From assembly GCA_001800285.1 (NCBI GenBank), contig MGVC01000001.1, forward strand, positions 1-64,000: a stretch of 64,000 nt of DNA, written 5' to 3'. The DNA is from Elusimicrobia bacterium RIFOXYA2_FULL_39_19 (GTDB lineage Bacteria; Elusimicrobiota; Endomicrobiia; CG1-02-37-114; XYA2-FULL-39-19). Numbering within the stretch: the stretch's first letter is position 1; every line of letters starts with the position of its first letter. Shown here in pieces: positions 3,542 through 45,396 of this stretch. A program made the position numbers and the translations under genes. The notes beneath the pieces were generated by a model, which was given only the letters and a program-made list of their open reading frames with translations, had not been told where the DNA came from and searched no databases.

Positions 3542-3590
3542 GGCATACGCGGAATATCAATAGCTATCGCGAAAAAAGGCGGTGATGCTT

Positions 3591-3689
3591 ATGATTTGGT
3601 GGTTGTTCAGGTTTATTAGTTTGTATTTTGTTTTACTCATCGTCGGAGCAGTTTGGTGGGTAATATGGCTGCTGTTTTATTTTAAGTAG
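3591..3689 (+). CDS. Single-membrane-span microprotein
   Basis: A 32-residue, almost entirely hydrophobic, tryptophan-rich peptide (MIWWLFRFISLYFVLLIVGA onwards) preceded by AAAGGCGGTGATGCTT. It is likely one membrane helix. No family recognised. Confidence 0.5.
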   Translation: MIWWLFRFISLYFVLLIVGAVWWVIWLLFYFK

Positions 3690-3731
3690 CCATAAGTAGT
3701 TTGTATTCTGCTCAAAAAGGCGGTGATATCG

Positions 3732-5375: not shown

Positions 5376-5435
5376 GGGTTTATTCCCGCGGAAGCTTTTA
5401 GCTTCAGCTAAACGCGAAAAAAGGAGGTGATATCA

Positions 5436-5624
5436 ATGCTTGCTAAAATCCCGATAAACTTTCTTGTTAGGAGTGCTTCTGTCCGCAAATTGGTTGTAGA
5501 AGCATTCCAGTGCCTGTTGGTAGTATTTCTTATCGGCCAGCATGTCGTTAAGAAAACACGCAGGTACTACAAGATAGTAAAAGAAAGCCAGAATTTGAGG
5601 TAAGAAACAGAAACGAGAAGTAAA
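5436..5624 (+). CDS. Small membrane-associated basic protein
   Basis: A 62-residue protein with a hydrophobic segment (about residues 19-34, EAFQCLLVVFLIG) and a strongly basic tail (HVVKKTRRYYKIVKRK). AAAAAGGAGGTGATATCA precedes the ATG. It is the last gene of the tiny-gene island and is followed directly by a terminator-like hairpin. Unknown function. Confidence 0.5.
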
Positions 5625-5630
5625 AATAAG

Positions 5631-5670
5631 CAATCTCAGAAAGGGGTTGCTATTTTTTTGCCCTAAGGGC
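5631..5670 (+). terminator. Terminator-like hairpin just before a start codon
   Basis: GCAATCTC and GGGGTTGC (5631-5638 and 5643-5650) form an 8-base stem with a 4-base loop, followed by TATTTTTTT. A second mini-hairpin GCCC-TAA-GGGC (5660-5670) follows and then AAAGGAG. The next ATG is at 5685, leaving no room for a promoter in between, so this is more likely a partial terminator or attenuator. Confidence 0.7.
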
Positions 5671-5684
5671 AAAGGAGAAACAAC

Positions 5685-6098
5685 ATGAACACAATTTCTA
5701 AAGAGGCCTTAAAACAAGCAGTAATTACCAGCCTGGAAGTATTTGAAGAAATTAAGAAGGAAAAAGGTGTCTCATTTTTATCAGAAGACTCTTTGATAAA
5801 AGTGGCCATATCGCTCTATATACAGGAGAGCAGAAATGGCAATGGACACAGTAACGGCAACGCTAACGGGTTTACAAAGGAGAAACCCAAGGCCGATGTT
5901 CCGCTCATAGTGAATTTCGGGAAGTACAAGGGCAAAACTTTGGAAGAGCTAGTCAAAATTGATCGCAGCTATGTCAATTGGCTAGCGGCAAAGTCTGAGA
6001 TTGAAAAGATTCGGCTTGAGGCAAAGAAACTTATTGAAGCAAACCCGGTTTCAACAGGGAATGTAACAATTCCTAAACCGAAGGCATTTCAGAAGTAA
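5685..6098 (+). CDS. Protein with exodeoxyribonuclease X C-terminal-like domain
   Basis: A 137-residue protein. Residues about 78-108 (VNFGKYKGKTLEELVKIDRS then YVNWL) match the short domain found at the C-terminus of exodeoxyribonuclease X and in many small phage proteins (Exodeox_X_C). That module is thought to assist DNA binding; no exonuclease catalytic domain is present here. The N-terminal 50 residues are helical, followed by a Gly/Asn/His-rich linker (about residues 52-62). It starts 15 bases after the mini-hairpin 5660-5670 and begins the DNA-processing block. Confidence 0.65.
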   Translation: MNTISKEALKQAVITSLEVFEEIKKEKGVSFLSEDSLIKVAISLYIQESRNGNGHSNGNANGFTKEKPKADVPLIVNFGKYKGKTLEELVKIDRSYVNWLAAKSEIEKIRLEAKKLIEANPVSTGNVTIPKPKAFQK

Positions 6099-6108
6099 AT
6101 CAGCAAAA

Positions 6109-6164
6109 GCAGGGCAGACATTAAGTCAGAGTCCTGATGGACTTCAAAGCCCTGCTATTTTTTT
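6109..6164 (+). terminator. Terminator-like hairpin just before a start codon
   Basis: GCAGGGC (6109-6115) pairs with GCCCTGC (6149-6155); an inner AGTC/GACT pairing is possible. TATTTTTTT follows, then GGAGG and the ATG at 6183, 18 bases after the T-run. Confidence 0.7.
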
Positions 6165-6182
6165 ATCCTTGGAGGATAATTT

Positions 6183-6950
6183 ATGGACAGAGATAACGGA
6201 AAAGAACTTCTTTCGGTTTCAAAAATCAAGATGTATTTGAGGTGCCCGCTCCAGTATTACTATCGATATTGCGAAGGCATCAAGATACCACCGGATGCAG
6301 GCTTGACTCTAGGAAAAGCGGTGCATTCTGGGATAGAGCAGAACTTCAGGCAGAAGATAACGAGCTTTTCTGACCTGCCTCTCAATGATGTTCTGGATAT
6401 TTACTCAACCGCGTTTGAAAGTTATCTCCAGGAGGAATTTAATTTTGGTGAAGATAAGCCCGGAGATGTGAAGGATTTGGGTGTTGGGCTTGTAAAAGTT
6501 TACCACGCAGAGTTGTCACCGAAAATCCAGCCGGTTAGTGTTGAAGAACATTTTATTTTGGAGTTCGAGGCACCGGTGGAATACGGATTTCAGGGATATA
6601 TGGATGTGATTGATGCTGAGTCAAATATCCGGGACAGCAAGACAGCCAAGCGATCCTATGCTCAGAATGCCGCGGAAAATGACCTTCAGCTCACTGCGTA
6701 TAACCTGGCGTACAAGTTTCTGAAGGGCAAAGAACCAAAGGCTTTAATCTTTGACGTGATGGTTAAGAACAAGACGCCAAAGGTTCAGACTATTTCTTCA
6801 CCGCCAAGAGGTGAAGCTCAACTTAACAGGTTGCTCAAGCTGATAGGGTTTGTTTCCAAGTCAATCAAGACAGGTGTATTTTACCCGTGTGAAAACGGTC
6901 AGGTGTGCAGCTGGTGCGGATATCGCAAGGACCATTGTTCGAGCTGGTAG
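6183..6950 (+). CDS. PD-(D/E)XK nuclease, RecB/Cas4-like, Fe-S type
   Basis: A 255-residue nuclease of the PDDEXK_1 type. Visible elements: SVSKIKMYLRCPLQYYYRY at the N-terminus (Cys21), GKAVHSGIE (His48), Asp141, the catalytic DSK (Asp151-Lys153), the QLTAY motif (Gln169) and a C-terminal cysteine group (Cys236, 242, 245, 252). Cys21 with the C-terminal cysteines is the typical 4Fe-4S cluster arrangement of Cas4/AddB-like nucleases. It probably degrades or trims DNA ends for the element's own recombination or replication. No cas genes or repeats are nearby, so it is not a CRISPR adaptation gene here. Confidence 0.85.
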   Translation: MDRDNGKELLSVSKIKMYLRCPLQYYYRYCEGIKIPPDAGLTLGKAVHSGIEQNFRQKITSFSDLPLNDVLDIYSTAFESYLQEEFNFGEDKPGDVKDLGVGLVKVYHAELSPKIQPVSVEEHFILEFEAPVEYGFQGYMDVIDAESNIRDSKTAKRSYAQNAAENDLQLTAYNLAYKFLKGKEPKALIFDVMVKNKTPKVQTISSPPRGEAQLNRLLKLIGFVSKSIKTGVFYPCENGQVCSWCGYRKDHCSSW

Positions 6951-6977
6951 GGTTAGATTCAAATGAAGCAAATAAAA

Positions 6978-7018
6978 GGGAGTGTCTTGTTGCTATACAG
7001 GTCACTCCCTAATTTTTA
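6978..7018 (+). terminator. Terminator-like hairpin just before a start codon
   Basis: GGGAGTG (6978-6984) pairs with CACTCCC (7003-7009), followed by TAATTTTTA and then AGGAGGTG. The next ATG is at 7033. Confidence 0.7.
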
Positions 7019-7032
7019 TCAGGAGGTGCAAT

Positions 7033-7347
7033 ATGTGTAAAAACATTTTTGATGATATGCCTATCATCAGTGCTTACACGCTCGAGCAAGCGATTTCTGA
7101 CGGAATCCTTGTGAAAGTTGGGCAGTGTGGCCGTTACGCCGTGATATTCACCGCTAACCTGTTTTATGACGGCGGTTACGAAGACAAGGACAAGCGGATG
7201 ATTCTTGTTCAAAAAGGGATTGAGATGCTTAAACAATCGGGCCCGGAGGATTCTGATTGTATGCGGTTACGTGTGGTCGAAAAGGACAAAATCTGGGTAA
7301 TCGCAGATGGCCAGGCAGTAACATTCATGAGACCTGAAGATTACTAA
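7033..7347 (+). CDS. DUF6573-like protein
   Basis: A 104-residue protein starting at the ATG after CAGGAGGTGCAAT. Its N-terminal pattern (PIISAYTLEQAISDGILVKV) matches the opening of DUF6573, a small family common in mobile elements and plasmids, often near ArdC and RadC as here. The function of the family is not known to me. The assignment is from memory of the motif and should be confirmed by a profile search. It opens a short run with two zinc-finger-like proteins. Confidence 0.6.
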   Translation: MCKNIFDDMPIISAYTLEQAISDGILVKVGQCGRYAVIFTANLFYDGGYEDKDKRMILVQKGIEMLKQSGPEDSDCMRLRVVEKDKIWVIADGQAVTFMRPEDY

Positions 7348-7358
7348 CGGAGGATGCC

Positions 7359-7556
7359 ATGAAAGATAACCGTTTCGTAATGGAAACTGCTGGTGGTGCA
7401 AGGATATGTAATCCCTGCGGCCGAAAAATCAGGATGGGAGAGAATTGCTTAGCATTTTCAAAAGGTTCCGGCCGATACAGTGTGTCAGGCAATGTTTGCA
7501 GACAGTGCCTGGTAAAATTCGTTGAAAAAACAAGGAATAAGGAGGTATCAATATGA
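7359..7556 (+). CDS. Small zinc-finger-like protein
   Basis: A 65-residue protein with two CXXC pairs (ICNPCGR near residue 16 and VCRQC near residue 47), suggesting one zinc-binding fold of the ribbon or treble-clef kind. Its start follows ACGGAGGATGCC. The end overlaps the next gene by 4 bases (ATGA). Confidence 0.55.
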   Translation: MKDNRFVMETAGGARICNPCGRKIRMGENCLAFSKGSGRYSVSGNVCRQCLVKFVEKTRNKEVSI

Positions 7557-7738
7557 AACTTAAATGTCCGAAAGGATGTAAGACAAAAATGAGATGTAAG
7601 TTCTATCGCGGCTGGTATGTGAATTTTCTTTACGATAGCAAAGGTAAAGAATTAAAGCTCGATGACACTTCATGGGAGCATTATGACAAAAGCTACCGGT
7701 GCAGATTGTGCCATGAACCTGCCGTAGAGGAGAAGTAA
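7553..7738 (+). CDS. Small cysteine-rich protein
   Basis: A 61-residue protein with CPKGCKTKMRC at the N-terminus and CRLCHE near the C-terminus; probably zinc-binding. It is translationally coupled to the previous gene, with AAGGAGGTATCAAT as ribosome site inside that gene. Function unknown. Confidence 0.55.
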   Translation: MKLKCPKGCKTKMRCKFYRGWYVNFLYDSKGKELKLDDTSWEHYDKSYRCRLCHEPAVEEK

Positions 7739-7761
7739 GGTTAGTGTTAAATTTAAGCAAA

Positions 7762-7806
7762 AGGGGAGCAATTCTGTGCTAATCGGAGTTGCTCCCCTAT
7801 TTTTTT
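7762..7806 (+). terminator. Terminator-like hairpin just before a start codon
   Basis: AGGGGAGCAA (7762-7771) pairs with TTGCTCCCCT (7789-7798), a 10-base stem extended inwards by G-U pairs, followed by ATTTTTTT and CGGAGG. The next ATG is at 7824, 17 bases after the T-run. Confidence 0.75.
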
Positions 7807-7823
7807 ATCGGAGGATAAAACAA

Positions 7824-8294
7824 ATGAACAACAAATTTAAAGACGTAAAGTTTATGACAGCAAAAGAAAAAGAGTTGGTGCTAAAAAACTGGATAAGATT
7901 TATTGAAACATTGGTTTCAAATCCAGGTAAAGACAAGCCGGACCTTTTCAGTAAATTTACCAAAAGGTTGTACGAGCATTTACATCTGCATTGTTCGTTC
8001 ATAGCCCACTATGACCGTTATGGCTTTTACACCACGTATTTTGATGACCCTGTCTATACGATAAAGTTCATCCAGCAGTTTGACAGTGATCTTGGGTGCA
8101 AGAGCGTTGAATACGGTTTTAATTGGTGGCAGGATGGCGACTTTGCAGATCTTAATCAGGCTATGTGTATAGCAATCGATGAACACAAGAAAACGCTATA
8201 CGAGAAATTGCGTAATAGCGAGAAAGAAAATGATGTAAATGCAGCTAAAGGTTTGGCTAATAAATGGGGTTACGTGCTTAAGGAGGTGAGATAA
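7824..8294 (+). CDS. Unknown 156-residue protein
   Basis: The start is set by CGGAGGATAAAACAA. The protein is rich in aromatic residues in its middle (SFIAHYDRYGFYTTYFDDPV) and helical at both ends, with no membrane segments. It resembles small mobile-element proteins of unknown role that sit beside ArdC/RadC; I do not recognise a family. Its last base overlaps the next start (8294), so the genes 7824-9841 form one overlapping unit. Confidence 0.6.
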   Translation: MNNKFKDVKFMTAKEKELVLKNWIRFIETLVSNPGKDKPDLFSKFTKRLYEHLHLHCSFIAHYDRYGFYTTYFDDPVYTIKFIQQFDSDLGCKSVEYGFNWWQDGDFADLNQAMCIAIDEHKKTLYEKLRNSEKENDVNAAKGLANKWGYVLKEVR

Positions 8295-8566
8295 TGAAAG
8301 TACTACAGGTAAAGTCACTGGAACACTTGAAGAAAATCTTGTTCAAGGGGCCGGGCGAGTTTTTTATAGCCCTTAACTATGACTGTAAATCCTCAAAAAC
8401 CGTGTCCTATGACAAGAAGTCCAAGGTTTTCTATGTGACAAATTGGATTGACGGCACAGAGCAGGAGTTATCCAGCAGGCAAATCATGAGTGTTGGCTGG
8501 ACAAACATCGGTAAGGCAATAAAAAAAGGAGCTTTCTATTATGAATGTTCCGGGAGGCAGCAATGA
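8294..8566 (+). CDS. Unknown 90-residue protein
   Basis: A small soluble protein with a strand-rich centre (GEFFIALNYDCKSSKTVSYD onwards). AAGGAGGTGAGATA precedes its ATG. The stop overlaps the RadC-like gene start (ATG at 8563). It has a similar size and setting to phage accessory proteins; unknown function. Confidence 0.55.
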   Translation: MKVLQVKSLEHLKKILFKGPGEFFIALNYDCKSSKTVSYDKKSKVFYVTNWIDGTEQELSSRQIMSVGWTNIGKAIKKGAFYYECSGRQQ

Positions 8567-9030
8567 AAAACAAGTTTAATCAATCGTTTGTTCATCTAGA
8601 GTTAGTACGGGATAAAAAGCCGGGGCCAGTTATCACTAAACCGATTGAGGCTATTGCGGTCATCAAGGCAATGCTTGGCAAAATGGACCGTGAATATTTT
8701 ATGTCAATCCATTTGTCTGCACGGAACAGCGTGACTGGCATAGAGGTTGTTTCTGTGGGCATACTTAATGCCAGCATGGTTCACCCGAGGGAAGTGTTTA
8801 AGGCTGCGATTTTGAATTCCTCGGCGAGCATTATACTGGTTCATAATCATCCAAGTTTTGATTTAACGCCAAGTGATGATGACCTTAAGCTCACAAAACG
8901 GCTGATTGAGTGTGGAAAATTGCTTGGCATTGAAGTTTTGGATCACATAATCACTGGAAATGCCGGCGATGAACATTTTTCGATGCAGTCAAAAGGTTTA
9001 ATTAAACAAGAGGAGGGGTCCTATGAATAA
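8563..9030 (+). CDS. RadC-like JAB/MPN-domain protein
   Basis: A 155-residue protein of the RadC family core (JAMM metal-binding domain). The signature HNHPSFDLTPSDDD gives the H-x-H...S...D metal ligands, and VHPREVFKAAILNSSASIIL is the usual segment just before it. The N-terminal helix-hairpin-helix of full-length chromosomal RadC is absent, as in most plasmid and element copies. Such short RadC proteins are linked with anti-restriction and mobile-element maintenance, though their biochemical role is unsettled. It overlaps the ArdC gene by 8 bases. A longer in-frame start (8545) exists but the GGGAGGCAGC site favours 8563. Confidence 0.85.
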   Translation: MKNKFNQSFVHLELVRDKKPGPVITKPIEAIAVIKAMLGKMDREYFMSIHLSARNSVTGIEVVSVGILNASMVHPREVFKAAILNSSASIILVHNHPSFDLTPSDDDLKLTKRLIECGKLLGIEVLDHIITGNAGDEHFSMQSKGLIKQEEGSYE

Positions 9031-9841
9031 CGTCACAGAAATTGTTACGAACAAGATTTTAGCTGAAATGGAAAAGGGAGTTGTGCCCTGGGAAAGGCCC
9101 TGGATTGTTATTCCTAAGCAAAACATGGTGAGCAAGAAGCCATATGGTGGAATTAACCGCCTATTGTTAGCCTTTGAGAATGAAGATTATTATCTTTCAT
9201 TCAACCAGGTTAAACAGCTTGGCGGAAAAATTAAGAAAGGTGCTAAAGCACAGATTGTGATATTCTGGAAACCGATTGAGAAACACAAAGCTGATGCAGA
9301 GAATAAAAAGCCTGAAGAAAAGCCGGAGTATTTTGTTCTCCTGAGGTATTACCGCGTGTTTAAACTCGCTGATACCGAAGGTATTTCCAGGCCGGAAAAG
9401 TTAAACAACAATCCCCGGCGGGAAGATATTGAGGCGTTTATCCAAAGAATCAATCCTAAAATTGAATTCGGCGGGTCGACTGCTTCATATAATCCTGAAA
9501 GCGACACAATCAATATGCCGGTAATTGAGCGGTTTAACGATTCGGATCATTATTATGCGACTTTTATGCACGAATTGCTGCATTGGACAGGTTCCAAAGG
9601 GAGGTTGGACCGGTTCAATGGTGATGGTATAAGCAATTACCATCAATCCTACGGCAAAGAGGAACTTGTCGCAGAGATAGGGAGTGCAATCCTGTGCCAC
9701 TATTTCGGGATATCCTTGCCCGCCCACAATGCTGCATACCTGGATAACTGGGTTAAGGCAATCAAGGGCGACAATAGGATGCTGCTGGGTGCTTCCGCCC
9801 GGGCAGAAAAAGCACTTGAGTTCCTGAAATTGGAAGTGTAA
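9023..9841 (+). CDS. ArdC-family antirestriction protein
   Basis: A 272-residue protein of the ArdC type: an N-terminal ssDNA-binding domain (residues about 1-115) with the VPWERPW motif, then a zincin metallopeptidase domain with HELLHWTG (His183, Glu184, His187) and a downstream Glu in GKEELVAEIG as third ligand. ArdC proteins protect incoming single-stranded DNA of plasmids and integrative elements from host nucleases or restriction. It is a strong marker that this region can transfer as DNA. GAGGAGGGGTCCT precedes the ATG inside the RadC-like gene. Confidence 0.9.
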   Translation: MNNVTEIVTNKILAEMEKGVVPWERPWIVIPKQNMVSKKPYGGINRLLLAFENEDYYLSFNQVKQLGGKIKKGAKAQIVIFWKPIEKHKADAENKKPEEKPEYFVLLRYYRVFKLADTEGISRPEKLNNNPRREDIEAFIQRINPKIEFGGSTASYNPESDTINMPVIERFNDSDHYYATFMHELLHWTGSKGRLDRFNGDGISNYHQSYGKEELVAEIGSAILCHYFGISLPAHNAAYLDNWVKAIKGDNRMLLGASARAEKALEFLKLEV

Positions 9842-9862
9842 AGGATAATGTTCAATGCAAAA

Positions 9863-9908
9863 GCGGGAGGTAATCTGTAAAAGGGTTGCCTCTCGCTATT
9901 TTTATTTT
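9863..9908 (+). terminator. Terminator-like hairpin just before a start codon
   Basis: GCGGGAGGTAAT (from 9863) pairs with GTTGCCTCTCGC (ending 9896) in a long stem with several G-U pairs, followed by TATTTTTATTTT and AGGAGG. The next ATG is at 9923. Confidence 0.65.
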
Positions 9909-9922
9909 AGGAGGTTAGTTTT

Positions 9923-11200
9923 ATGCAGATAACACTTGAAACAGTAAGAGAAACATTAAGGAAGGCACTCGGCTGGGAGTCCTATGTGGCAAGATTTATC
10001 AGTAAAACTATTGAAGCCAGGGATACTCCCACGGTTTGTATTACAAAAGAAGGGGTCCTTAGATTCAACCCTGATTTTCTTGAAGAGCATGTTAAAACCC
10101 AGGAAGATTTGTTTAGTGTGGTATTTCACGAACTGTTACACCCGATGTTCAACCATTTTATTTACCGTTGCGGTGACCTTGAAAACATTGCTACCGACAG
10201 CATAATCAATGCTGTGATAAGTAAACTGTATTGTGAGCAATCTGACGGTGGTAAGTTCTTCGCTAAACTCTACACTGCTACCGGCTTAACCGGGTTACTA
10301 AGGCCAAACAGCAACCTGCGGGAGACGCGGTTTGAGGGCTTGTATGGCAACCTATATTATTGCGGGCCAAAAATTACTACTGGCGATGTAATTCAGACGC
10401 TAAGGATACTTGCTGATACTGTACCTGCGGGTATAACGCTTATTGGCTCGCATTCCGGTGAAGGTAACATTCCTGCTGATATTGCGGAGAAAATTGCTAG
10501 CGAGCTAAAGGACAATATCTCAAAGCAGTACAGAAAGAACGCTGGAAGCAACAATAATCTTGCTGATTTGTTCATAGAGATTCTTAAAAGCAAGTTTACA
10601 CTAAGAAAGCAGATTCTTGAGCGGTATGTTTCAAATACAGTTAAAAGCAAATTTAAGTCGTTTGTGGGTAACGACGCAGAACGGGTTTCACCTGTGCTTA
10701 CATCAGGTTGCAGGCTCAGGCGTGCAGCGGTGTTACTATCTTGTGGTGTATATCCTGTAAGGTATTACATCCCCAAAAGCAGCCTTAAGCCAAAAAGCGG
10801 GATTGTAGTATATCTTGATGTCAGCGGTAGTTTTCAGGATTGCCTGCCGGATATTGTTGGCGTGCTTATGACAATCAAAGATAAACTCGGGAAAGTATAC
10901 GCGTTTTCTAATGTTGTTAAAGAAATCCCGTTTACTGACCTGGTGAAAGGCAAGACTTCAAGCACTGGCGGGACTGATTTTGATTGCATAGCATTATCAA
11001 TCCTTGAAAACAGGTATGAACATTCAATAGTAATTACCGATGGCTATGCTAATTTAAAGGATGACCTTGCAGAAAAGTTGAGGGTATTTAATCCAAGGAT
11101 ACTCACAATAATGTTTGACGGTAAAATGAGCTGCTCTGAGTTTCAACCCTTCGGGGATGTAGTGCAGCTTGACGATATCAAGGAGGTGGTCGGACAATAA
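9923..11200 (+). CDS. DUF2201-like metallopeptidase + VWA domain protein
   Basis: A 425-residue protein with two parts. The N-terminal part carries a zincin motif FHELLHPMFNHF (His69, Glu70, His73). The C-terminal part is a von Willebrand A-like domain starting near residue 290 with the metal-binding DVSGS motif and later SSTGGTDF and IVITDGYA. This is the architecture of DUF2201 proteins, which usually occur with a MoxR AAA+ ATPase, as here (next gene). MoxR-VWA pairs act as ATP-driven chaperone or activator complexes; the target on this element is unknown. The gene has its own hairpin-plus-ribosome-site leader. Confidence 0.8.
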   Translation: MQITLETVRETLRKALGWESYVARFISKTIEARDTPTVCITKEGVLRFNPDFLEEHVKTQEDLFSVVFHELLHPMFNHFIYRCGDLENIATDSIINAVISKLYCEQSDGGKFFAKLYTATGLTGLLRPNSNLRETRFEGLYGNLYYCGPKITTGDVIQTLRILADTVPAGITLIGSHSGEGNIPADIAEKIASELKDNISKQYRKNAGSNNNLADLFIEILKSKFTLRKQILERYVSNTVKSKFKSFVGNDAERVSPVLTSGCRLRRAAVLLSCGVYPVRYYIPKSSLKPKSGIVVYLDVSGSFQDCLPDIVGVLMTIKDKLGKVYAFSNVVKEIPFTDLVKGKTSSTGGTDFDCIALSILENRYEHSIVITDGYANLKDDLAEKLRVFNPRILTIMFDGKMSCSEFQPFGDVVQLDDIKEVVGQ

Positions 11201-11232
11201 GATTCAATTTCAGTTAAGTTTTAAGTTACAAA

Positions 11233-11274
11233 AGAGAGGAAATAAACCTCTCTATTTTTATGCCCAAAAAGGGC
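11233..11274 (+). terminator. Terminator-like hairpin just before a start codon
   Basis: AGAGAGG (11233-11239) pairs with CCTCTCT (11247-11253), followed by ATTTTTA. A mini-hairpin GCCC-AAAAA-GGGC (11262-11274) then leads into CAAGGAG and the ATG at 11288. The arrangement copies that at 5631-5670. Confidence 0.65.
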
Positions 11275-11287
11275 CAAGGAGAATACT

Positions 11288-12742
11288 ATGTTATTAGAAA
11301 AGTTAGGAATTTATGGTTGGACAGAGAAGGATGAGAATTTGTTGTTGGCATGTTTGCTTACCGGTGATCCGTTGTTACTTATTGGAAGCCACGGGACCGC
11401 AAAAACCCAGGTAATCTACAAACTTGCAGAATCCCTGGGCAAGAAATTTATTGCTTATGACGCTTCAAAAGCGTTGTTTGAAGATGTATTGGGCTATCCA
11501 AACATTCAGATGCTCAAGCAAGGCAGGGTTGAGTATATTCCGTCGACAGTCACAATCTGGGATAAGGAGTTTATCCTTATAGACGAACTAAACAGGGCAT
11601 TACCGGAAATGCAATCCAAATGGCTGGAGATAATCCGCTCTAGGAAAATCATGGGCATTCCAACAGCCGTGAAATGGTGTTTCAGTGCGATGAACTTTTC
11701 AAGCTATGCCGGTGCTCAGCAGTTGGACGAAGCATTGATTGGCAGGTTTGCATTGTTTCTTTATCCACCGGAAGCAATGAAAATGAGTGAAGAAAACAGG
11801 ATAAAGGTACTGACTCATATCAATGGTGACGATGGAATTGCAATCAGTGAATGGACTTCAGGCAAAAACTGTAAGACAATCACGCAGGAAGATACCACGC
11901 TTACCGGCGAAACTTTAAGCAAGGTTCTAAAGAAATCTGCTAAGCATTTCATGAAATTGCGGGAACATATGGATACATTACCGGTATTCCTGGCAAAATT
12001 CAGTGAGCTTGTGCTTAAAGAGACAAGCGGGACTCTTTCGCTTGATGGCCGCCGGTTAGGATTTATCTACAGGAACATAATTGCTAACCGTGCAGTTGAG
12101 CTGGCAAAAACAGAGATTTGTAGTGATACTACTCCAAATCTTACAGATAGTGCAAGGTATGTCATAGAATCCAGTATTCCAGTGGGATTAAATGACGCTT
12201 CAATAAAACGCGATGAAATCATGCACAAGTTTGAAATCTGTTTTGACCTGCTGGCAGACTATTTCAAGGATGACTCCGAACTGTCAAATGTAAATTTAGT
12301 GTATGAGCTATTTACTACGAACGATTTTATGCGAAAGGCAGAATTACTGATTAAGCATAATTTATCAGAGCTTGCCAAAACCAAAGCATGGAACGATCTC
12401 GTGAACAACGAAGAAGACATTACCTTGTTTGCATACAGTGCCTTGCAGGTTGAAACCAGGAGACCGGGAACTGTGCCAAAGGAAATGATCGAATCACTGA
12501 GCAAGAAAATTGATTTCAGTAAACTGTGTTCAGAGAGCATTCCTAGACTTAAGAATGACCAGATTGAGTTTATTGAAGAAATAGAAGATTTGTTTAACCA
12601 GGAAACTGACCTGGGCAGGATTGTTGCGTATGGGTGCATCAATAAGCTCACTGAGAAAGATATAATTACTCAGGAGGATATCGAAGAAACGAAAGTAAGA
12701 ATTCAGTCAGAGATTGAGACATTCAATAAACTTATAGCCTAA
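11288..12742 (+). CDS. MoxR-type AAA+ ATPase
   Basis: A 484-residue ATPase. Walker A is GSHGTAKT (residues 33-40), Walker B FILIDELNRA (Asp99, Glu100), followed by the MoxR-like segment PEMQSKWLEIIRSRKIMG and an Asn-sensor/arginine-finger region (SAMNFSS...LDEALIGRF). The C-terminal 250 residues are helical and of unknown fold. It lies directly after the DUF2201/VWA gene, its usual partner, and 12 bases before a third gene, suggesting a three-protein complex. MoxR ATPases usually remodel or activate a partner protein using the VWA protein as adaptor. Confidence 0.85.
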   Translation: MLLEKLGIYGWTEKDENLLLACLLTGDPLLLIGSHGTAKTQVIYKLAESLGKKFIAYDASKALFEDVLGYPNIQMLKQGRVEYIPSTVTIWDKEFILIDELNRALPEMQSKWLEIIRSRKIMGIPTAVKWCFSAMNFSSYAGAQQLDEALIGRFALFLYPPEAMKMSEENRIKVLTHINGDDGIAISEWTSGKNCKTITQEDTTLTGETLSKVLKKSAKHFMKLREHMDTLPVFLAKFSELVLKETSGTLSLDGRRLGFIYRNIIANRAVELAKTEICSDTTPNLTDSARYVIESSIPVGLNDASIKRDEIMHKFEICFDLLADYFKDDSELSNVNLVYELFTTNDFMRKAELLIKHNLSELAKTKAWNDLVNNEEDITLFAYSALQVETRRPGTVPKEMIESLSKKIDFSKLCSESIPRLKNDQIEFIEEIEDLFNQETDLGRIVAYGCINKLTEKDIITQEDIEETKVRIQSEIETFNKLIA

Positions 12743-12754
12743 AAGGAGGCCATC

Positions 12755-14131
12755 ATGTTTAGCGTATACAGATTATCTTTAAAATCAGACAAGAAAGTTA
12801 ATGGATTTAAAAGGTTGAATTTTACTAAAGTTGAAGTACCACTATCAAAGCTATTAAAAGAAGGTATTCACCCGGCGTATAGTTTTGGTAGTTATAAATG
12901 CCTAAGGGATAAACTCACGGATGCAATCAATCAGGAAAAGTTTATTCCGCCGGAATTAAAACAACTCGATTATACTAGAGAATTTAGTTCAGGCGTGAAT
13001 GACTATACAGAAAATGATAAGCTAAAGTTATTTCTTGAAGAAATAAAGGCGGTTATCTACTTTATAGATAGTGATATCAGGTTCCCGGACCTGCTTGAAA
13101 TAGCAAAGGAACAGCTTAAGAAAGACTGGACTCACTATAGTGTAAAAGAGATACTTAAAGCCTGCTACCACGATTTCAACGAACTGCGAACTTTTGTAAA
13201 AAGCAAGGATCCGGAAGTCAAAATGGTTGGTTATGAAAGTCTGGACAATATGCATCTTGATAAAATCCTGAAAATAGAGGATTTCAGTGCATTTGAAAAG
13301 ATGCTTATTTTATATGGGTTTGAAACACACAACTTCAGGTATGCCGATTATCTTAAAAGCATCACTACGGCAGAAGGTTTCCTTTCCCTAAAGCCGGAAA
13401 TAACAGAATTCCAGTTAAAATATCCTGCTTCAAAGGAGAAACCAATCATATACAACTGTAAACTTACAGGCGATGTTGTAAAGTGTTATCCTGAACTGGA
13501 TGAGTTTTCTGAGAAGAAAAGGCAGATTGCTAAGGAATTCAGCCGGCTATATGCAGTCAACAATGAGAAATACTGCCCTGCTGTTCCATTAAGCAAAATA
13601 GAAGAGCTTCAGGAACAAAAAATCGCGTATATCTATTTTGGAAGCCTCAGTTATAGGGAAGAAGCGGATGAATTGCCAACAAAATCCGAAGCGGGCCTTA
13701 AGAAAGAATCAGTTAGGTTCTATAAGATAGACAAGTTCCTGACTGAATCCGCTTCTAACAAGAAATTGCAGGAGATACTAAAGTATTTTGACGAAAAGAT
13801 TTCTGGCCGCAAGGAGGAGATTGTTGAAAGATATACAGATATTGCTGTGCAGGAATACAATAAATCCTTACCTAAGCTGGATAAGTATTTTGCTGACAGG
13901 AAATTTATCAAAGTCAGTATAGATAGTAGGGATGAAGATGGGCAGGAATTTGAGGTGCTTAAAGACAATCCGATTAAGAACCTGTTGCTGTCTATGTATT
14001 TTATCAAGCACTTACGCGGGAATATAGTATTTGATACTGGATATGAAAATGACACTTATCTCGTCAAGGAGCTGGCAAAGGCATTGATTGACAGAAAGGT
14101 ATTCCTGGATGGTGGATTTGTGGAGGCATAG
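12755..14131 (+). CDS. Unknown 458-residue partner of MoxR-VWA
   Basis: A large soluble protein, start set by AAAAGGAGGCCATC. No catalytic motif or known domain is visible; it is rich in Lys, Glu and Tyr, with mostly helical character and short strand-rich stretches near both ends. It follows the MoxR gene by 12 bases and probably belongs to the same transcript. Because MoxR-VWA modules often carry a dedicated target or adaptor gene, this is the likely substrate or third subunit; that is inference from position only. Confidence 0.65.
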   Translation: MFSVYRLSLKSDKKVNGFKRLNFTKVEVPLSKLLKEGIHPAYSFGSYKCLRDKLTDAINQEKFIPPELKQLDYTREFSSGVNDYTENDKLKLFLEEIKAVIYFIDSDIRFPDLLEIAKEQLKKDWTHYSVKEILKACYHDFNELRTFVKSKDPEVKMVGYESLDNMHLDKILKIEDFSAFEKMLILYGFETHNFRYADYLKSITTAEGFLSLKPEITEFQLKYPASKEKPIIYNCKLTGDVVKCYPELDEFSEKKRQIAKEFSRLYAVNNEKYCPAVPLSKIEELQEQKIAYIYFGSLSYREEADELPTKSEAGLKKESVRFYKIDKFLTESASNKKLQEILKYFDEKISGRKEEIVERYTDIAVQEYNKSLPKLDKYFADRKFIKVSIDSRDEDGQEFEVLKDNPIKNLLLSMYFIKHLRGNIVFDTGYENDTYLVKELAKALIDRKVFLDGGFVEA

Positions 14132-20106: not shown

Positions 20107-20135
20107 TTGTTTTTCCATCAAAAAAAATGTAAAAT
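20107..20135 (+). promoter_or_regulatory. TTGTTT-type promoter of the sigma-like gene
   Basis: TTGTTT (20107-20112), 17 bases, TAAAAT (20130-20135). The expected start of transcription is within a few bases of the ATG at 20146, again a (nearly) leaderless message. The GGTTGTTTTT core recurs at 22191 and 25066. Confidence 0.55.
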
Positions 20136-20145
20136 ATTTTCCATC

Positions 20146-22026
20146 ATGGATTTTAAAAATAAAAATATGAATGCTACTATTACCTTCCAAGATTTAAAAT
20201 CTCGGAAAGTAACAACCATTTGGGGTGACAGTGTTATAAATGTAAAAAGTGTTACTATTAGCCTTAATAAACACAAATACACTCTAAAACATTATTCACT
20301 TGAAGAACCCGAAAACCAATTGCTTACAATCATCAAGTATTTTGATAAAGTCTTTAATGATTTAAGAGATCAACAAAAGGATTTTGATTACCAAGAAAAT
20401 CCTGAAGAGAGTTTTATTGATATTAATAATATTAGAGCTCTTGACGAAGACGCTGTTAGTGTAAAGTCATATATAAACTCAAAAAGATACATGTTGAAAT
20501 TGTATAATTACTTAAACATGAATATTGACAGGGTTACAAGACGCGAATTTAAACTCGATTACTTAGATAGCCAATATTATCCTTCTATGCAAGAGCTTTT
20601 TAAAGCACACCCGATAAAAAACATAAACCCCATAGATAAACTAGATGAATTAGTGCCAGAAGTAGCAGACGAATTAAGTGAATTACTTATGGGTGTTGTA
20701 TATGAAGAGGACATATTAGAATTAACAAAAAATCTCCCTGAAGCATTTGACCCTATGCTCCTTAATTATGTATTTGCTGAATTCACTAATATCATTCAAA
20801 AAGGAGAAATAAAAGAGCATTTTAGTTTCAAAGAATTTAAGGAAAAGTACTTGGATAGCACCGAGAATGCAAGTAAATCTTTTGAAGATTTACAGAAATT
20901 AATAATCAAACACATAGATGGGAAACGGAATACAGTCATCCCTGAAGATCAAATAAAGAAATCTATGGAGCAAATTTATAGCAAGATTCAGAAAATGGAA
21001 GAGGAAATACATGAGCAAGATAAAATAGTTAAATCCTGCAATATAAAAGAAAGAGTTGAGGGTCTAATAAGAGATTATAGCAGGGACAGATATGAGGATC
21101 TGTTGAATGATTTAGTAGAATGCAAATTAATAAAAAAAGAACTCAAAGAATTAAAAGTAAAACAACTTGGAGAGATTGAATCAGGGGAAGGATTGTTGGA
21201 TTTTGAATTAAACTATATGAGAACAACTTTTACTCAAAGGTCTGTGTATTATGAATTACTACGGAGCATTGTTGATATAAACTACTTTGAAACAATGCAT
21301 TTTGTCAATACATCTATTTATAGAGAGTTCTCAAAAGACATGAATAAGTACGAAAAAAGATTATTCCAACTAATTTATTTTAGGCAAAAAATATTTTTAA
21401 ATAGAATATTTGGATTAGACGAATCGAGAGGTATTACTAGCTTTTATAGTGGAATGCCTGATTATATTAAAGTGTATATAATATTAGTTACTGTGTTTAA
21501 GCTAAAGAAAATTGACGACAGTCCGATTCAAGAATATTTTAACCTTCCTCCAATTGAGCAACTGTATAAAAAATATCTAAAAATATATCCTTTATGGACA
21601 TATTTTGCCCGAGAAGACCAACACGATAGGTATTATAAGGAATCATTTACAAGCGGTACGCCCTGTGCAGAAAATGGAAAATTAGTAGAAAAATTACCTG
21701 AGAAAGGAATACATGTGCCACTTGATAAACGCGAACTCAATCGAGACGGCAATTTAGAAAGACCATTTCATGAAACTGTAGCTAAAAAAGAAAAAAATAT
21801 TTTAGAGTACATGATTTTAGGAGATATCTGGAAAATTGTGGATAAGTACTGTACAAAACCCCAAGCAGATTGTCTTAAACTTAAATATAATCCAGATATT
21901 GGGAAAAAATTGACTGATAAGGAAATTGCTGAAAAAATAGGTTTAACACAACAAAATGTTCAAAAACATATAAACAAAGCATATGAAAGATTACGTGAAG
22001 AAATTGACAAGATAGATAACATATAG
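20146..22026 (+). CDS. Large protein with sigma-like C-terminal HTH
   Basis: A 626-residue, very AT-rich gene. The last 60 residues (KPQADCLKLKYN...LTDKEIAEKIGLTQQNVQKH...AYERLREEID) form a helix-turn-helix of the sigma-70 region 4/LuxR kind. The rest is long, helical and charged, with no recognised domain, and is far larger than a usual sigma factor. The start codon is uncertain: 20146 has no Shine-Dalgarno but lies just after a plausible promoter; 20167 is another possibility. It may be an element-specific transcription factor. A terminator follows at 22098. Confidence 0.65.
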   Translation: MDFKNKNMNATITFQDLKSRKVTTIWGDSVINVKSVTISLNKHKYTLKHYSLEEPENQLLTIIKYFDKVFNDLRDQQKDFDYQENPEESFIDINNIRALDEDAVSVKSYINSKRYMLKLYNYLNMNIDRVTRREFKLDYLDSQYYPSMQELFKAHPIKNINPIDKLDELVPEVADELSELLMGVVYEEDILELTKNLPEAFDPMLLNYVFAEFTNIIQKGEIKEHFSFKEFKEKYLDSTENASKSFEDLQKLIIKHIDGKRNTVIPEDQIKKSMEQIYSKIQKMEEEIHEQDKIVKSCNIKERVEGLIRDYSRDRYEDLLNDLVECKLIKKELKELKVKQLGEIESGEGLLDFELNYMRTTFTQRSVYYELLRSIVDINYFETMHFVNTSIYREFSKDMNKYEKRLFQLIYFRQKIFLNRIFGLDESRGITSFYSGMPDYIKVYIILVTVFKLKKIDDSPIQEYFNLPPIEQLYKKYLKIYPLWTYFAREDQHDRYYKESFTSGTPCAENGKLVEKLPEKGIHVPLDKRELNRDGNLERPFHETVAKKEKNILEYMILGDIWKIVDKYCTKPQADCLKLKYNPDIGKKLTDKEIAEKIGLTQQNVQKHINKAYERLREEIDKIDNI

Positions 22027-25980: not shown

Positions 25981-26060
25981 GGTTAAAAAGAAACCGGAAA
26001 CAAGCTGTAAACATGGAAATTTCCATAAGGTAGCATAGTGTGAAGTGCAGTAAAGTAACG

Positions 26061-26125
26061 GGTGAGGATTCTGGGGTTTGTTACCGCCCCAGAACTCACC
26101 AAAAAATAAAAATGCCCCAAGGGGC
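26061..26125 (+). ncRNA. Structured leader RNA, copy 1
   Basis: GGTGAG-GA-TTCTGGGG pairs with CCCCAGAA-CTCACC (26061-26100), a 14-base stem with a GA bulge and a loop containing TTGTTACC. AAAAAATAAAAAT and the perfect mini-hairpin GCCCC-AA-GGGGC (26114-26125) follow, ending in the GGAGG of the gene at 26140. A near copy lies at 27024. It is likely a cis-acting leader. It is not a terminator, since no T-run follows the stem. Confidence 0.7.
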
Positions 26126-26139
26126 GGAGGAAAACTAAG

Positions 26140-26961: not shown

Positions 26962-27023
26962 GGTAGCGTAAAGTACGGTAATGCGATGTAAGGCACAGTA
27001 AAGTGTAGCGAAGCAAAGCGAAG

Positions 27024-27087
27024 GGTGAGGATTCTGGGGTTGCTACCACCCCAGAACTCACCAAAAAATAAAAATGCCCCAAGGGGC
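27024..27087 (+). ncRNA. Structured leader RNA, copy 2
   Basis: The same architecture as 26061-26125: a GGTGAG-GA-TTCTGGGG stem with CCCCAGAA-CTCACC, a loop with TTGCTACC, the same AAAAAATAAAAAT linker and the same GCCCC-AA-GGGGC mini-hairpin before GGAGG. The region just upstream (26961-27023) holds imperfect GTAAAGT-type repeats, also related to those before copy 1. The conserved stem and variable loop argue for an RNA-level role. Confidence 0.7.
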
Positions 27088-30457: not shown

Positions 30458-31576
30458 ATGAGCCAAAATAATTGGAAAAAACGTAAATATCGTGGCATGT
30501 CGGAGAAGAATGGTATATGGCATTTGGATTACTATGTCTCTGGAAAAAGAGTCAGGGAAAAGATAGGAACTGACAGAAAGTTAGCGGAAATAGTTCTTAA
30601 AAAACGGAAGGTTGAGGTTGCAGAATGTAAGTTTCTTAATAAAAAGAAGAAATATAGGTTCTTTAAATTATGTGACACCTATCTGAAAAATTATTCCCTG
30701 CCCAACAAAAGGTCCTATGACTCTGATGTAGGATTTGTGAAATGTTTTAAAGAGCATTTTAAAGACATATATTTGGATCAATTTACGCCTTTGCTTATTG
30801 AAAAATATAAATCCGAAAGGTGTTGTAGTGTTAAACCGTCAAGTGTCAACAGAGCACTGGTTGTATTGAAATCTATGTTTAGCCGGGCTGTTGAGTGGGG
30901 AATAACAGAAGCAAATCCAGTAAAAAAGGTTAAATTGTTTTCAGTAGATAACGGAAGGTTAAGATTTTTATCAACTGAAGAAATCAAGAGATTGCTGGAC
31001 AACTGTTCAGGATACTTGTATGATATAGTAGTGCTTGCGTTAACCACCGGTATGCGAAGAGGCGAAATATTGAATATGAAGTGGGAAGACGTTGATCTTA
31101 AGAATGGTACCATCTTCATACCTTTTGGTAACTCAAAAAATAAGCACAGTCGCGAGATTCCAATGAATAGTATTTTAATGCATACCTTCAATAATATAAA
31201 GCGGAATCCTAAGAGTCTATATGTTTTTTGTCACAGTGATGGCAGAATGATACTTGATATTAAAAAGTCATTTGGTACAGCATTAAGGAAAGCAGAAATT
31301 CAAGAAGCAACTTTTCATACCATGAGGCATACATTTTGCTCTCAATTGGCCTTGGCAGGCGTTGATATTTTCACAATAAAAGAGCTGGTAGGGCACCGGA
31401 AGATTGAAATGACTATGAGATATGCCCATTTAACCCCAAATCACAAGAAAGCAGCCCTTGAGATATTGAATAACAAGATAGTACCATTGCTAGCAACGGA
31501 CACTTTAACGGACACTCCTGATTTGGGGACGATAATAAGAGAACAGAAAGCATTGTATTTATCGACGGTAAATTGA
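30458..31576 (+). CDS. int: Tyrosine recombinase (integrase)
   Basis: A 372-residue tyrosine integrase. The N-terminal part (residues 1-60) is an AP2-like/arm-binding domain, then a SAM-like core-binding domain (about 70-150). The catalytic residues are visible: Arg200 in TTGMRRGE, HTMRH (His287, Arg290), His313 in LVGHRK and Tyr322 in MRYAHL. It ends 34 bases before the tRNA-Val 3' fragment it presumably recognises and catalyses insertion at that tRNA gene. Full length, no frameshift. Confidence 0.95.
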   Translation: MSQNNWKKRKYRGMSEKNGIWHLDYYVSGKRVREKIGTDRKLAEIVLKKRKVEVAECKFLNKKKKYRFFKLCDTYLKNYSLPNKRSYDSDVGFVKCFKEHFKDIYLDQFTPLLIEKYKSERCCSVKPSSVNRALVVLKSMFSRAVEWGITEANPVKKVKLFSVDNGRLRFLSTEEIKRLLDNCSGYLYDIVVLALTTGMRRGEILNMKWEDVDLKNGTIFIPFGNSKNKHSREIPMNSILMHTFNNIKRNPKSLYVFCHSDGRMILDIKKSFGTALRKAEIQEATFHTMRHTFCSQLALAGVDIFTIKELVGHRKIEMTMRYAHLTPNHKKAALEILNNKIVPLLATDTLTDTPDLGTIIREQKALYLSTVN

Positions 31577-44872: not shown

Positions 44873-45396
44873 TGAGCCGGGGTTGGTATATTATCAGAAC
44901 ACGCTCTGAATACGAAAAAAAAGTTAAGCAGGCAATAGATAAAACCGTTGAAAATTTAGGTTTGGGTTCAAGAATATTTCAGGTTGTAGTTCCGCATGAA
45001 GAAGTGGTAGAACTTCGCAGAAATAAAAAGTATGTTAAAACCAGGCCCTTTTTTACGGGTTATGTTTTTATAGATATGGATTTAGACCAAGATACTTACT
45101 GGGTAGTAAAAAATACTTCCGGAGTAAGTGGATTTCTTGGCGGAACAGCACCGATCCCCATGCCGGAAGATGAAGTAAAAAACCTCATCACCGTTATGGA
45201 AAGCCCCATGCAGGTCAAACCGGCAATTACCTTTGAAAAAGATGAAACAGTAAGAATAATAGACGGTCCATTTGCTCATTTTATGGGTGTAGTTGAAGAA
45301 ATAAATGAAGAAAAAGGCAAATTGAAAGTTATGGTAACAATATTTGGTCGTTCCACACCGGTCGAATTGAATTTCTTCCAGGTTGAAAAAATATAG
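44872..45396 (+). CDS. nusG: Transcription termination/antitermination factor NusG
   Basis: A 174-residue NusG: N-terminal NGN domain (WYIIRTRSEYEKKVKQAID...RPFFTGYVFIDMDLD, WVVKNTSGVSGFLGG) and a KOW domain (GPFAHFMGVVEEINEEKGKL). Complete. It links RNA polymerase to elongation, Rho and the ribosome. Confidence 0.97.
   Translation: MSRGWYIIRTRSEYEKKVKQAIDKTVENLGLGSRIFQVVVPHEEVVELRRNKKYVKTRPFFTGYVFIDMDLDQDTYWVVKNTSGVSGFLGGTAPIPMPEDEVKNLITVMESPMQVKPAITFEKDETVRIIDGPFAHFMGVVEEINEEKGKLKVMVTIFGRSTPVELNFFQVEKI

What the first reader, a model, noticed from the sequence alone, without database searches (positions are those of the whole stretch)
5631..11274. Six terminator-like hairpins, each ending just before the next start codon
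At 5631, 6109, 6978, 7762, 9863 and 11233 a stem plus T-run (often CTATTTTT) is followed within about 15-30 bases by GGAGG and an ATG. There is no space for a promoter after the hairpin. So the downstream genes must depend on read-through, processive antitermination or graded termination along the operon. The six stems differ in sequence but keep the same plan.
Basis: partly seen in the sequence, partly recalled or inferred. Interest (0 to 1): 0.8.

Follow-up and report, generated by a model that had tools for sequence, protein, structure and literature searches.

The report
Leaky-terminator hairpins hugging start codons
A mobile DNA element has six terminator-like RNA hairpins inside one gene string, each pressed against the next gene's ribosome-binding site; relatives keep the same layout, so they probably meter or punctuate transcription along the operon, as in some phages and conjugative plasmids, but nobody has measured it here.

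Summary
All six hairpins are at the stated places, each with a 5-7 base T-run and then a Shine-Dalgarno and ATG within 22-34 bases. A strict scan finds 6 in the element's + strand, 0 in its - strand, 2 in 384 kb of other sequence from the genome (both strands), and 0.015 per shuffle. They fill every spacer longer than 12 bases between 5603 and 12755. The spacers are all 81-87 bases.

A related element in another family of the same class (G038) keeps hairpins at these junctions, and an Omnitrophica element (L082) has three in 1 kb. Hairpin 2 is a three-way junction with compensatory changes in four elements. The spacer holding hairpin 6 is 95% identical between two elements whose flanking genes are 73-77% identical. 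So the structures appear to be under selection.

Best reading: leaky intrinsic terminators punctuating a long mobile-element operon, passed by partial read-through and possibly by processive antitermination. The precedents are phiX174, pLS20 and Tn916. Not shown: any RNA 3' end, promoter or antiterminator. The genome's single NusG and single NusB lie outside the element. Four of six hairpins score below the usual terminator cut-off, so mRNA processing or stabilisation remains a live rival.

The parts
5629..5659 (+). hairpin 1 + T7, then a second small hairpin GCCC-TAA-GGGC and AGGAG before the ExoX-like gene 5685
   Evidence: same plan incl. second hairpin in relative R1
6104..6164 (+). hairpin 2: three-way junction (P1, A, P2, A, P3, AAA) + T7, upstream of the PDDEXK nuclease gene 6183
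   Evidence: compensatory changes in 4 elements
6977..7017 (+). hairpin 3 + T5 before gene 7033
7762..7806 (+). hairpin 4 + T7 before gene 7824; homologous stem lies before the VWA gene in G038 and a similar one after the same 61-aa gene in G000 contig 24
9862..9903 (+). hairpin 5 + T5 before the VWA/peptidase-like gene 9923
11201..11262 (+). hairpin 6 (11233-11253) + T5 with its 32-nt upstream block; second small hairpin GCCC-AAAAA-GGGC follows
   Evidence: 61/64 identical in G038 from stop codon to T-run, against 73-77% in flanking genes
5685..6098 (+). 137-aa protein with ExoX-like C-terminal domain
   Evidence: PF20600
6183..6950 (+). PD-(D/E)XK nuclease
   Evidence: PF12705
7033..7347 (+). 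conserved 104-aa protein, found in five related element fragments
7359..7738 (+). two small ORFs (65 and 61 aa); the 61-aa gene is 88% identical in contig 24 and followed there by a hairpin like hairpin 4
7824..9841 (+). 156-aa, 90-aa, RadC-like and ArdC-like genes, packed without hairpins
9923..12742 (+). VWA-type putative metallopeptidase gene and MoxR-type AAA ATPase gene, separated by hairpin 6
   Evidence: 'VWA-type' is inferred from sequence motifs (HELLHP, DVSGS)
30458..31576 (+). tyrosine integrase near the right end of the element
   Evidence: PF00589

Best explanation
The six hairpins are intrinsic terminators, mostly leaky ones, placed at the junctions of gene blocks in one long operon of an integrative mobile element. 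Polymerase coming from upstream partly terminates at each T-run. The part that reads through transcribes the next block, whose SD starts right after the T-run. This grades mRNA along the operon and stops spurious transcripts. A processive antitermination device may cancel the terminators when the element is induced. Shown: the structures, their strict placement, and their conservation with changed sequences. Inferred: that they terminate, that read-through is how downstream genes are expressed, and any antitermination.
For: Hairpin + T-run + SD + ATG is far above chance and only on the coding strand. The plan is kept at the same junctions in G038 (h1, h2, h4, h5, h6), in contig 41 (h2), and three times in an Omnitrophica element with a TraG-like coupling ATPase and a Replic_Relax protein; the three in L082 score as strong terminators. 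The approximate d-scores of the window's hairpins are low (-33.6 to +4.7), as expected for leaky ones. A hairpin like hairpin 4 follows the same 61-aa gene in contig 24 although the next gene differs, as for a 3'-end signal. Precedents: phiX174 intercistronic terminators of about 40-60% efficiency (PMC11527146); [quoted passage not shown] Tn916 terminators with canT (PMC11658703).
Against: No RNA data. Four of six score clearly below zero on the approximate d-score, partly because an A interrupts the U-tract start. T-runs shorten to 4 in relatives R3, R4, R5 and C56 while the stem stays, and in C56 the Ts are paired inside the stem. The 32 nt upstream of hairpin 6 are as conserved as the hairpin, which a plain terminator does not need. 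No antiterminator was identified.
Confidence: 0.5

Rival explanations
1. mRNA punctuation: the hairpins are not mainly terminators. They are stable 3' and 5' ends around an RNase cut in the U-rich strip, so the polycistron is cut into segments of different stability.
For: Stems are better conserved than T-runs. In C56 the T-run is absorbed into the stem. Differential decay guided by RNA structures is common in E. coli operons (PMC5927463).
Against: T-runs of 5-8 sit directly at or near the stem base in the window, in R1/R2/R6 and (4-5) in L082, which processing does not need.
Confidence: 0.22
2. Separate transcription units: each block has its own promoter inside the 3' end of the gene before it, and each hairpin is a full terminator or a 5' leader hairpin followed by a U-rich, S1-type translation enhancer and the SD.
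For: The stop-to-T-run block at h6 is 95% conserved, including 32 nt upstream of the hairpin. Hairpin, U-rich strip, SD is also the anatomy of known 5' leaders such as T7 gene 10 (own knowledge).
Against: No sigma-70-like site in five of six spacers. Hairpin 2 begins 9 nt after the stop codon, so its promoter would lie in coding sequence. No shared upstream motif was found by eye.
Confidence: 0.15
3. Attenuators: each hairpin senses a ligand, protein or ribosome and switches its own downstream gene; hairpin 2 with its conserved junction is a small riboswitch or protein-binding RNA.
For: Hairpin 2 keeps unpaired A / A / AAA and a three-way fold in four elements, with 6 of 17 pairs showing a change on both sides, always before the PDDEXK gene.
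Against: No Rfam match. The other five hairpins are plain stems. No alternative antiterminator fold is evident. Only four sequences are known.
Confidence: 0.1
4. Recombination or cassette boundaries: the hairpins mark where gene blocks are exchanged, without a role in expression.
For: The hairpin 4 stem occurs before a different gene in G038 (E = 4e-9), and DNA homology between the two elements begins or ends at or next to hairpins 4 and 5.
Against: Stems vary freely in sequence, so a common recombinase site is unlikely. The six are strand-biased and T-tailed.
Confidence: 0.03

Closest known systems
pLS20-type conjugation operons with conAn processive antitermination (PMC8955417)
   Same: many intrinsic terminators inside one long mobile-element operon
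   Different: no ConAn1-like protein or conAn2-like RNA identified here; the host is an unnamed draft genome outside the Gram-positive groups described; hairpins hug the next SD in a fixed-length spacer
Tn916 terminators T1-T3 with canT antiterminator RNA (PMC11658703)
   Same: integrative element with internal intrinsic terminators
   Different: few terminators and a mapped antiterminator in Tn916; none mapped here
phiX174 intercistronic terminators TJ, TF, TG, TH (PMC11527146)
   Same: leaky terminators between consecutive genes that grade transcript levels
   Different: lytic ssDNA phage; terminators measured there, only predicted here
Differential-decay operons with protective structures (PMC5927463)
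   Same: stable hairpins at segment boundaries within operons
   Different: protective structures there are often inside coding sequence; no processing data here

Membership tests
Intrinsic (Rho-independent) terminator | GC-rich stem directly followed by a T-rich tract | tested here: met
Intrinsic (Rho-independent) terminator | score above zero on the d'Aubenton-Carafa-type index (approximate re-implementation from memory) | tested here: inconclusive
   +4.7 and -1.2 for hairpins 4 and 5, -13.9 to -33.6 for the other four; L082 copies +33 to +40
Intrinsic (Rho-independent) terminator | RNA 3' ends at the T-run | not testable with these tools
   no RNA data
Operon with processive antitermination (conAn, canT, put, EAR, LoaP) | several intrinsic terminators inside one operon | tested here: met
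   (as predicted structures; that the string is one operon is inferred from the packing)
Operon with processive antitermination (conAn, canT, put, EAR, LoaP) | NusG paralog (LoaP type) or extra NusB-type factor in the element | tested here: not met
   single NusG and single NusB in the genome, both outside the element; this excludes the LoaP type, not RNA-based or unknown protein types
Operon with processive antitermination (conAn, canT, put, EAR, LoaP) | antiterminator RNA near the operon start | tested here: inconclusive
   no Rfam hit; unknown RNAs not excluded
Known riboswitch or leader RNA | match to an Rfam family | tested here: not met
phiX174-type graded terminators | measured partial read-through and stepwise mRNA levels | not testable with these tools
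   no RNA data

The most novel reading that the evidence does not exclude
The hairpins are the target side of an undescribed regulatory system of mobile elements in uncultured bacteria. Hairpin 2 would be a new small three-way-junction RNA, and the conserved block before hairpin 6 a new cis signal, that together with an element protein set which gene blocks are read through.
Probability: 0.15. Interest if true: 0.7.

Novelty: new variant of a known kind. Interest (0 to 1): 0.47.

Why it matters
Terminators inside an operon are regarded as a good sign of a processive antitermination system (PMC8955417). A conserved series of them in elements of uncultured bacteria would point to such a system outside the groups where it is known, and gives exact sites to test. 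The three-way-junction hairpin is a concrete new RNA candidate.

Tried and rejected
Promoters between hairpin and SD: no room, no consensus. Known RNA family: none. Hairpin 2 model over 341 genomes of the phylum: only the four known copies score high; the remaining eight hits are weak (24-27 bits against 69-84) and look like plain terminators. Relatives in phages and viral contigs: none useful. The 18-mer before hairpin 6 elsewhere in the two genomes: two inexact hits without hairpins, chance-like. Remnant of the 61-aa gene before R5 in G038: suggestive only, p about 0.06-0.08. More distant MoxR/VWA loci lack the series; in two of them a hairpin precedes metK, which may be a riboswitch terminator.

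Full report
WHAT IS THERE. The window is the start of contig 1 of an unnamed 3.1-Mb draft genome. Its left 31.6 kb looks like an integrative element. A tyrosine integrase lies at 30458-31576. RadC-like, ArdC-like, PD-(D/E)XK, ExoX-like and MoxR-type genes lie in one same-strand string, with a weak sigma-like protein at 20107-22026. To the right follow chromosomal genes, including nusG at 44884.

OBSERVATION. All six hairpins are present. Each lies in a spacer of 81-87 nt. Every other gene junction from 5603 to 12755 is at most 12 nt or overlaps. Stem to ATG is 22-34 nt, T-run to SD 3-17 nt. The spacers fold much better than shuffles, with z from -2.3 to -6.0. Other long gaps of the element mostly do not, although 25980, 26961 and 3541 are also structured without long T-runs. 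A strict search for hairpin, T-run, SD and ATG together gives 6 on the element's + strand, 0 on its - strand, 2 in 384 kb of the rest of the genome sample, and 0.015 per shuffle.

CONSERVATION. The VWA-type protein has a 77% identical homolog in G038, another family of the same class. That element keeps hairpins at the junctions of h1, h2, h4, h5 and h6, plus one at a different gene, with mostly different stem sequences. Three more fragments of related elements lie in the same genome on contigs 41, 24 and 56. A wider search with the 104-aa protein found an Omnitrophica element (L082) with a TraG-like coupling ATPase and a Replic_Relax protein, carrying three such hairpins in 1 kb. So the layout is shared by several elements.

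HAIRPIN 2. It is a three-way junction: P1, A, P2 (GA(C)...(G)TC), A, P3 (G...TC), AAA, P1'. In four elements 95% of cells pair and 6 of 17 pairs change on both sides. The shuffled mean is 2.1, and 1 of 500 shuffles reaches 6. Sliding the partner columns destroys the pairing. The alignment has only four rows and the structure was drawn on it by hand, so this is good but not final evidence. The model finds no other strong copy in 341 genomes.

HAIRPIN 6. From the stop codon to the T-run, 61 of 64 positions are identical in G038. The flanking genes are 73% and 77% identical, and third codon positions of the AAA gene 56%. The constraint covers the block upstream of the hairpin too, so this spacer carries more than a stem. 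Recent exchange of just this spacer is an alternative.

SHUFFLING. Hairpin 4's stem recurs before the VWA gene in G038, where hairpin 5 would be (BLAST E = 4e-9). A similar hairpin follows the same 61-aa gene in contig 24, where the next gene is RadC instead of the 156-aa gene. This fits a 3'-end signal that stays with the upstream gene while downstream blocks change.

MECHANISM. The anatomy is that of intrinsic terminators: stem, T-run, same strand. No promoter fits behind them, and sigma-70-like sites are absent around five of six. On an approximate d'Aubenton-Carafa-type score, hairpins 4 and 5 are near zero and the other four negative, whereas the three L082 hairpins and two in G038 are clearly positive. 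I therefore expect leaky termination in this element. Partial intercistronic terminators that grade mRNA are known in phiX174 (efficiencies of about 40-60% for TJ, TF and TG; PMC11527146). [quoted passage not shown] Tn916 uses internal terminators and the canT RNA (PMC11658703). An antiterminator here is possible but unproven: one NusG and one NusB in the genome, both outside the element, and no known RNA family.

ALTERNATIVES. Stems outlast T-runs in some relatives (R3, R4, R5, C56). That keeps mRNA processing and stability alive as a rival (PMC5927463). Separate promoters inside upstream genes, attenuators, and pure recombination boundaries are less likely, for the reasons in the rival list.

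VERDICT. A real, conserved and unusual layout, best filed as a new variant of terminator-punctuated mobile-element operons. No step of the expression mechanism has been measured.

Noticed in passing
window 5660-5677, 11262-11280; G038 R1: A second small hairpin (GCCC...GGGC) lies between T-run and AGGAG at hairpins 1 and 6 and in the G038 copy of hairpin 1; several SDs (e.g. 6168-6180, 7805-7817) also sit in small predicted stems.
   Followed up: partly
window 7762-7798; L034 about 9115-9153 (-); G038 C5 (L007/L008) copies R4, R5: Straight stems of 13-16 bp with 7-nt loops such as TTCAAYY resembling a tRNA T-loop.
   Followed up: partly
G000 contigs 24, 41, 56 (L034, L018, L035): Three more fragments of related elements in the same genome.
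   Followed up: partly
L056 8196-8269, L058 8586-8643: In other genomes of the phylum a hairpin with T-run hugs the start of metK, which precedes MoxR/VWA genes; possibly a riboswitch terminator.
   Followed up: no
window 20107-22026: 639-aa protein with only a C-terminal sigma-70 region 4 match: possible element sigma factor.
   Followed up: no
window 3542-3722, 25981-26139 and 26962-27073: Three other long gaps of the element fold better than shuffles (z -2.5, -3.0 and -4.2) but have no T-run of 5 or more.
   Followed up: no
window 5376-5435: Spacer with inverted repeats and an A-run instead of a T-run before GGAGG; fold not significant (z -1.1).
   Followed up: partly
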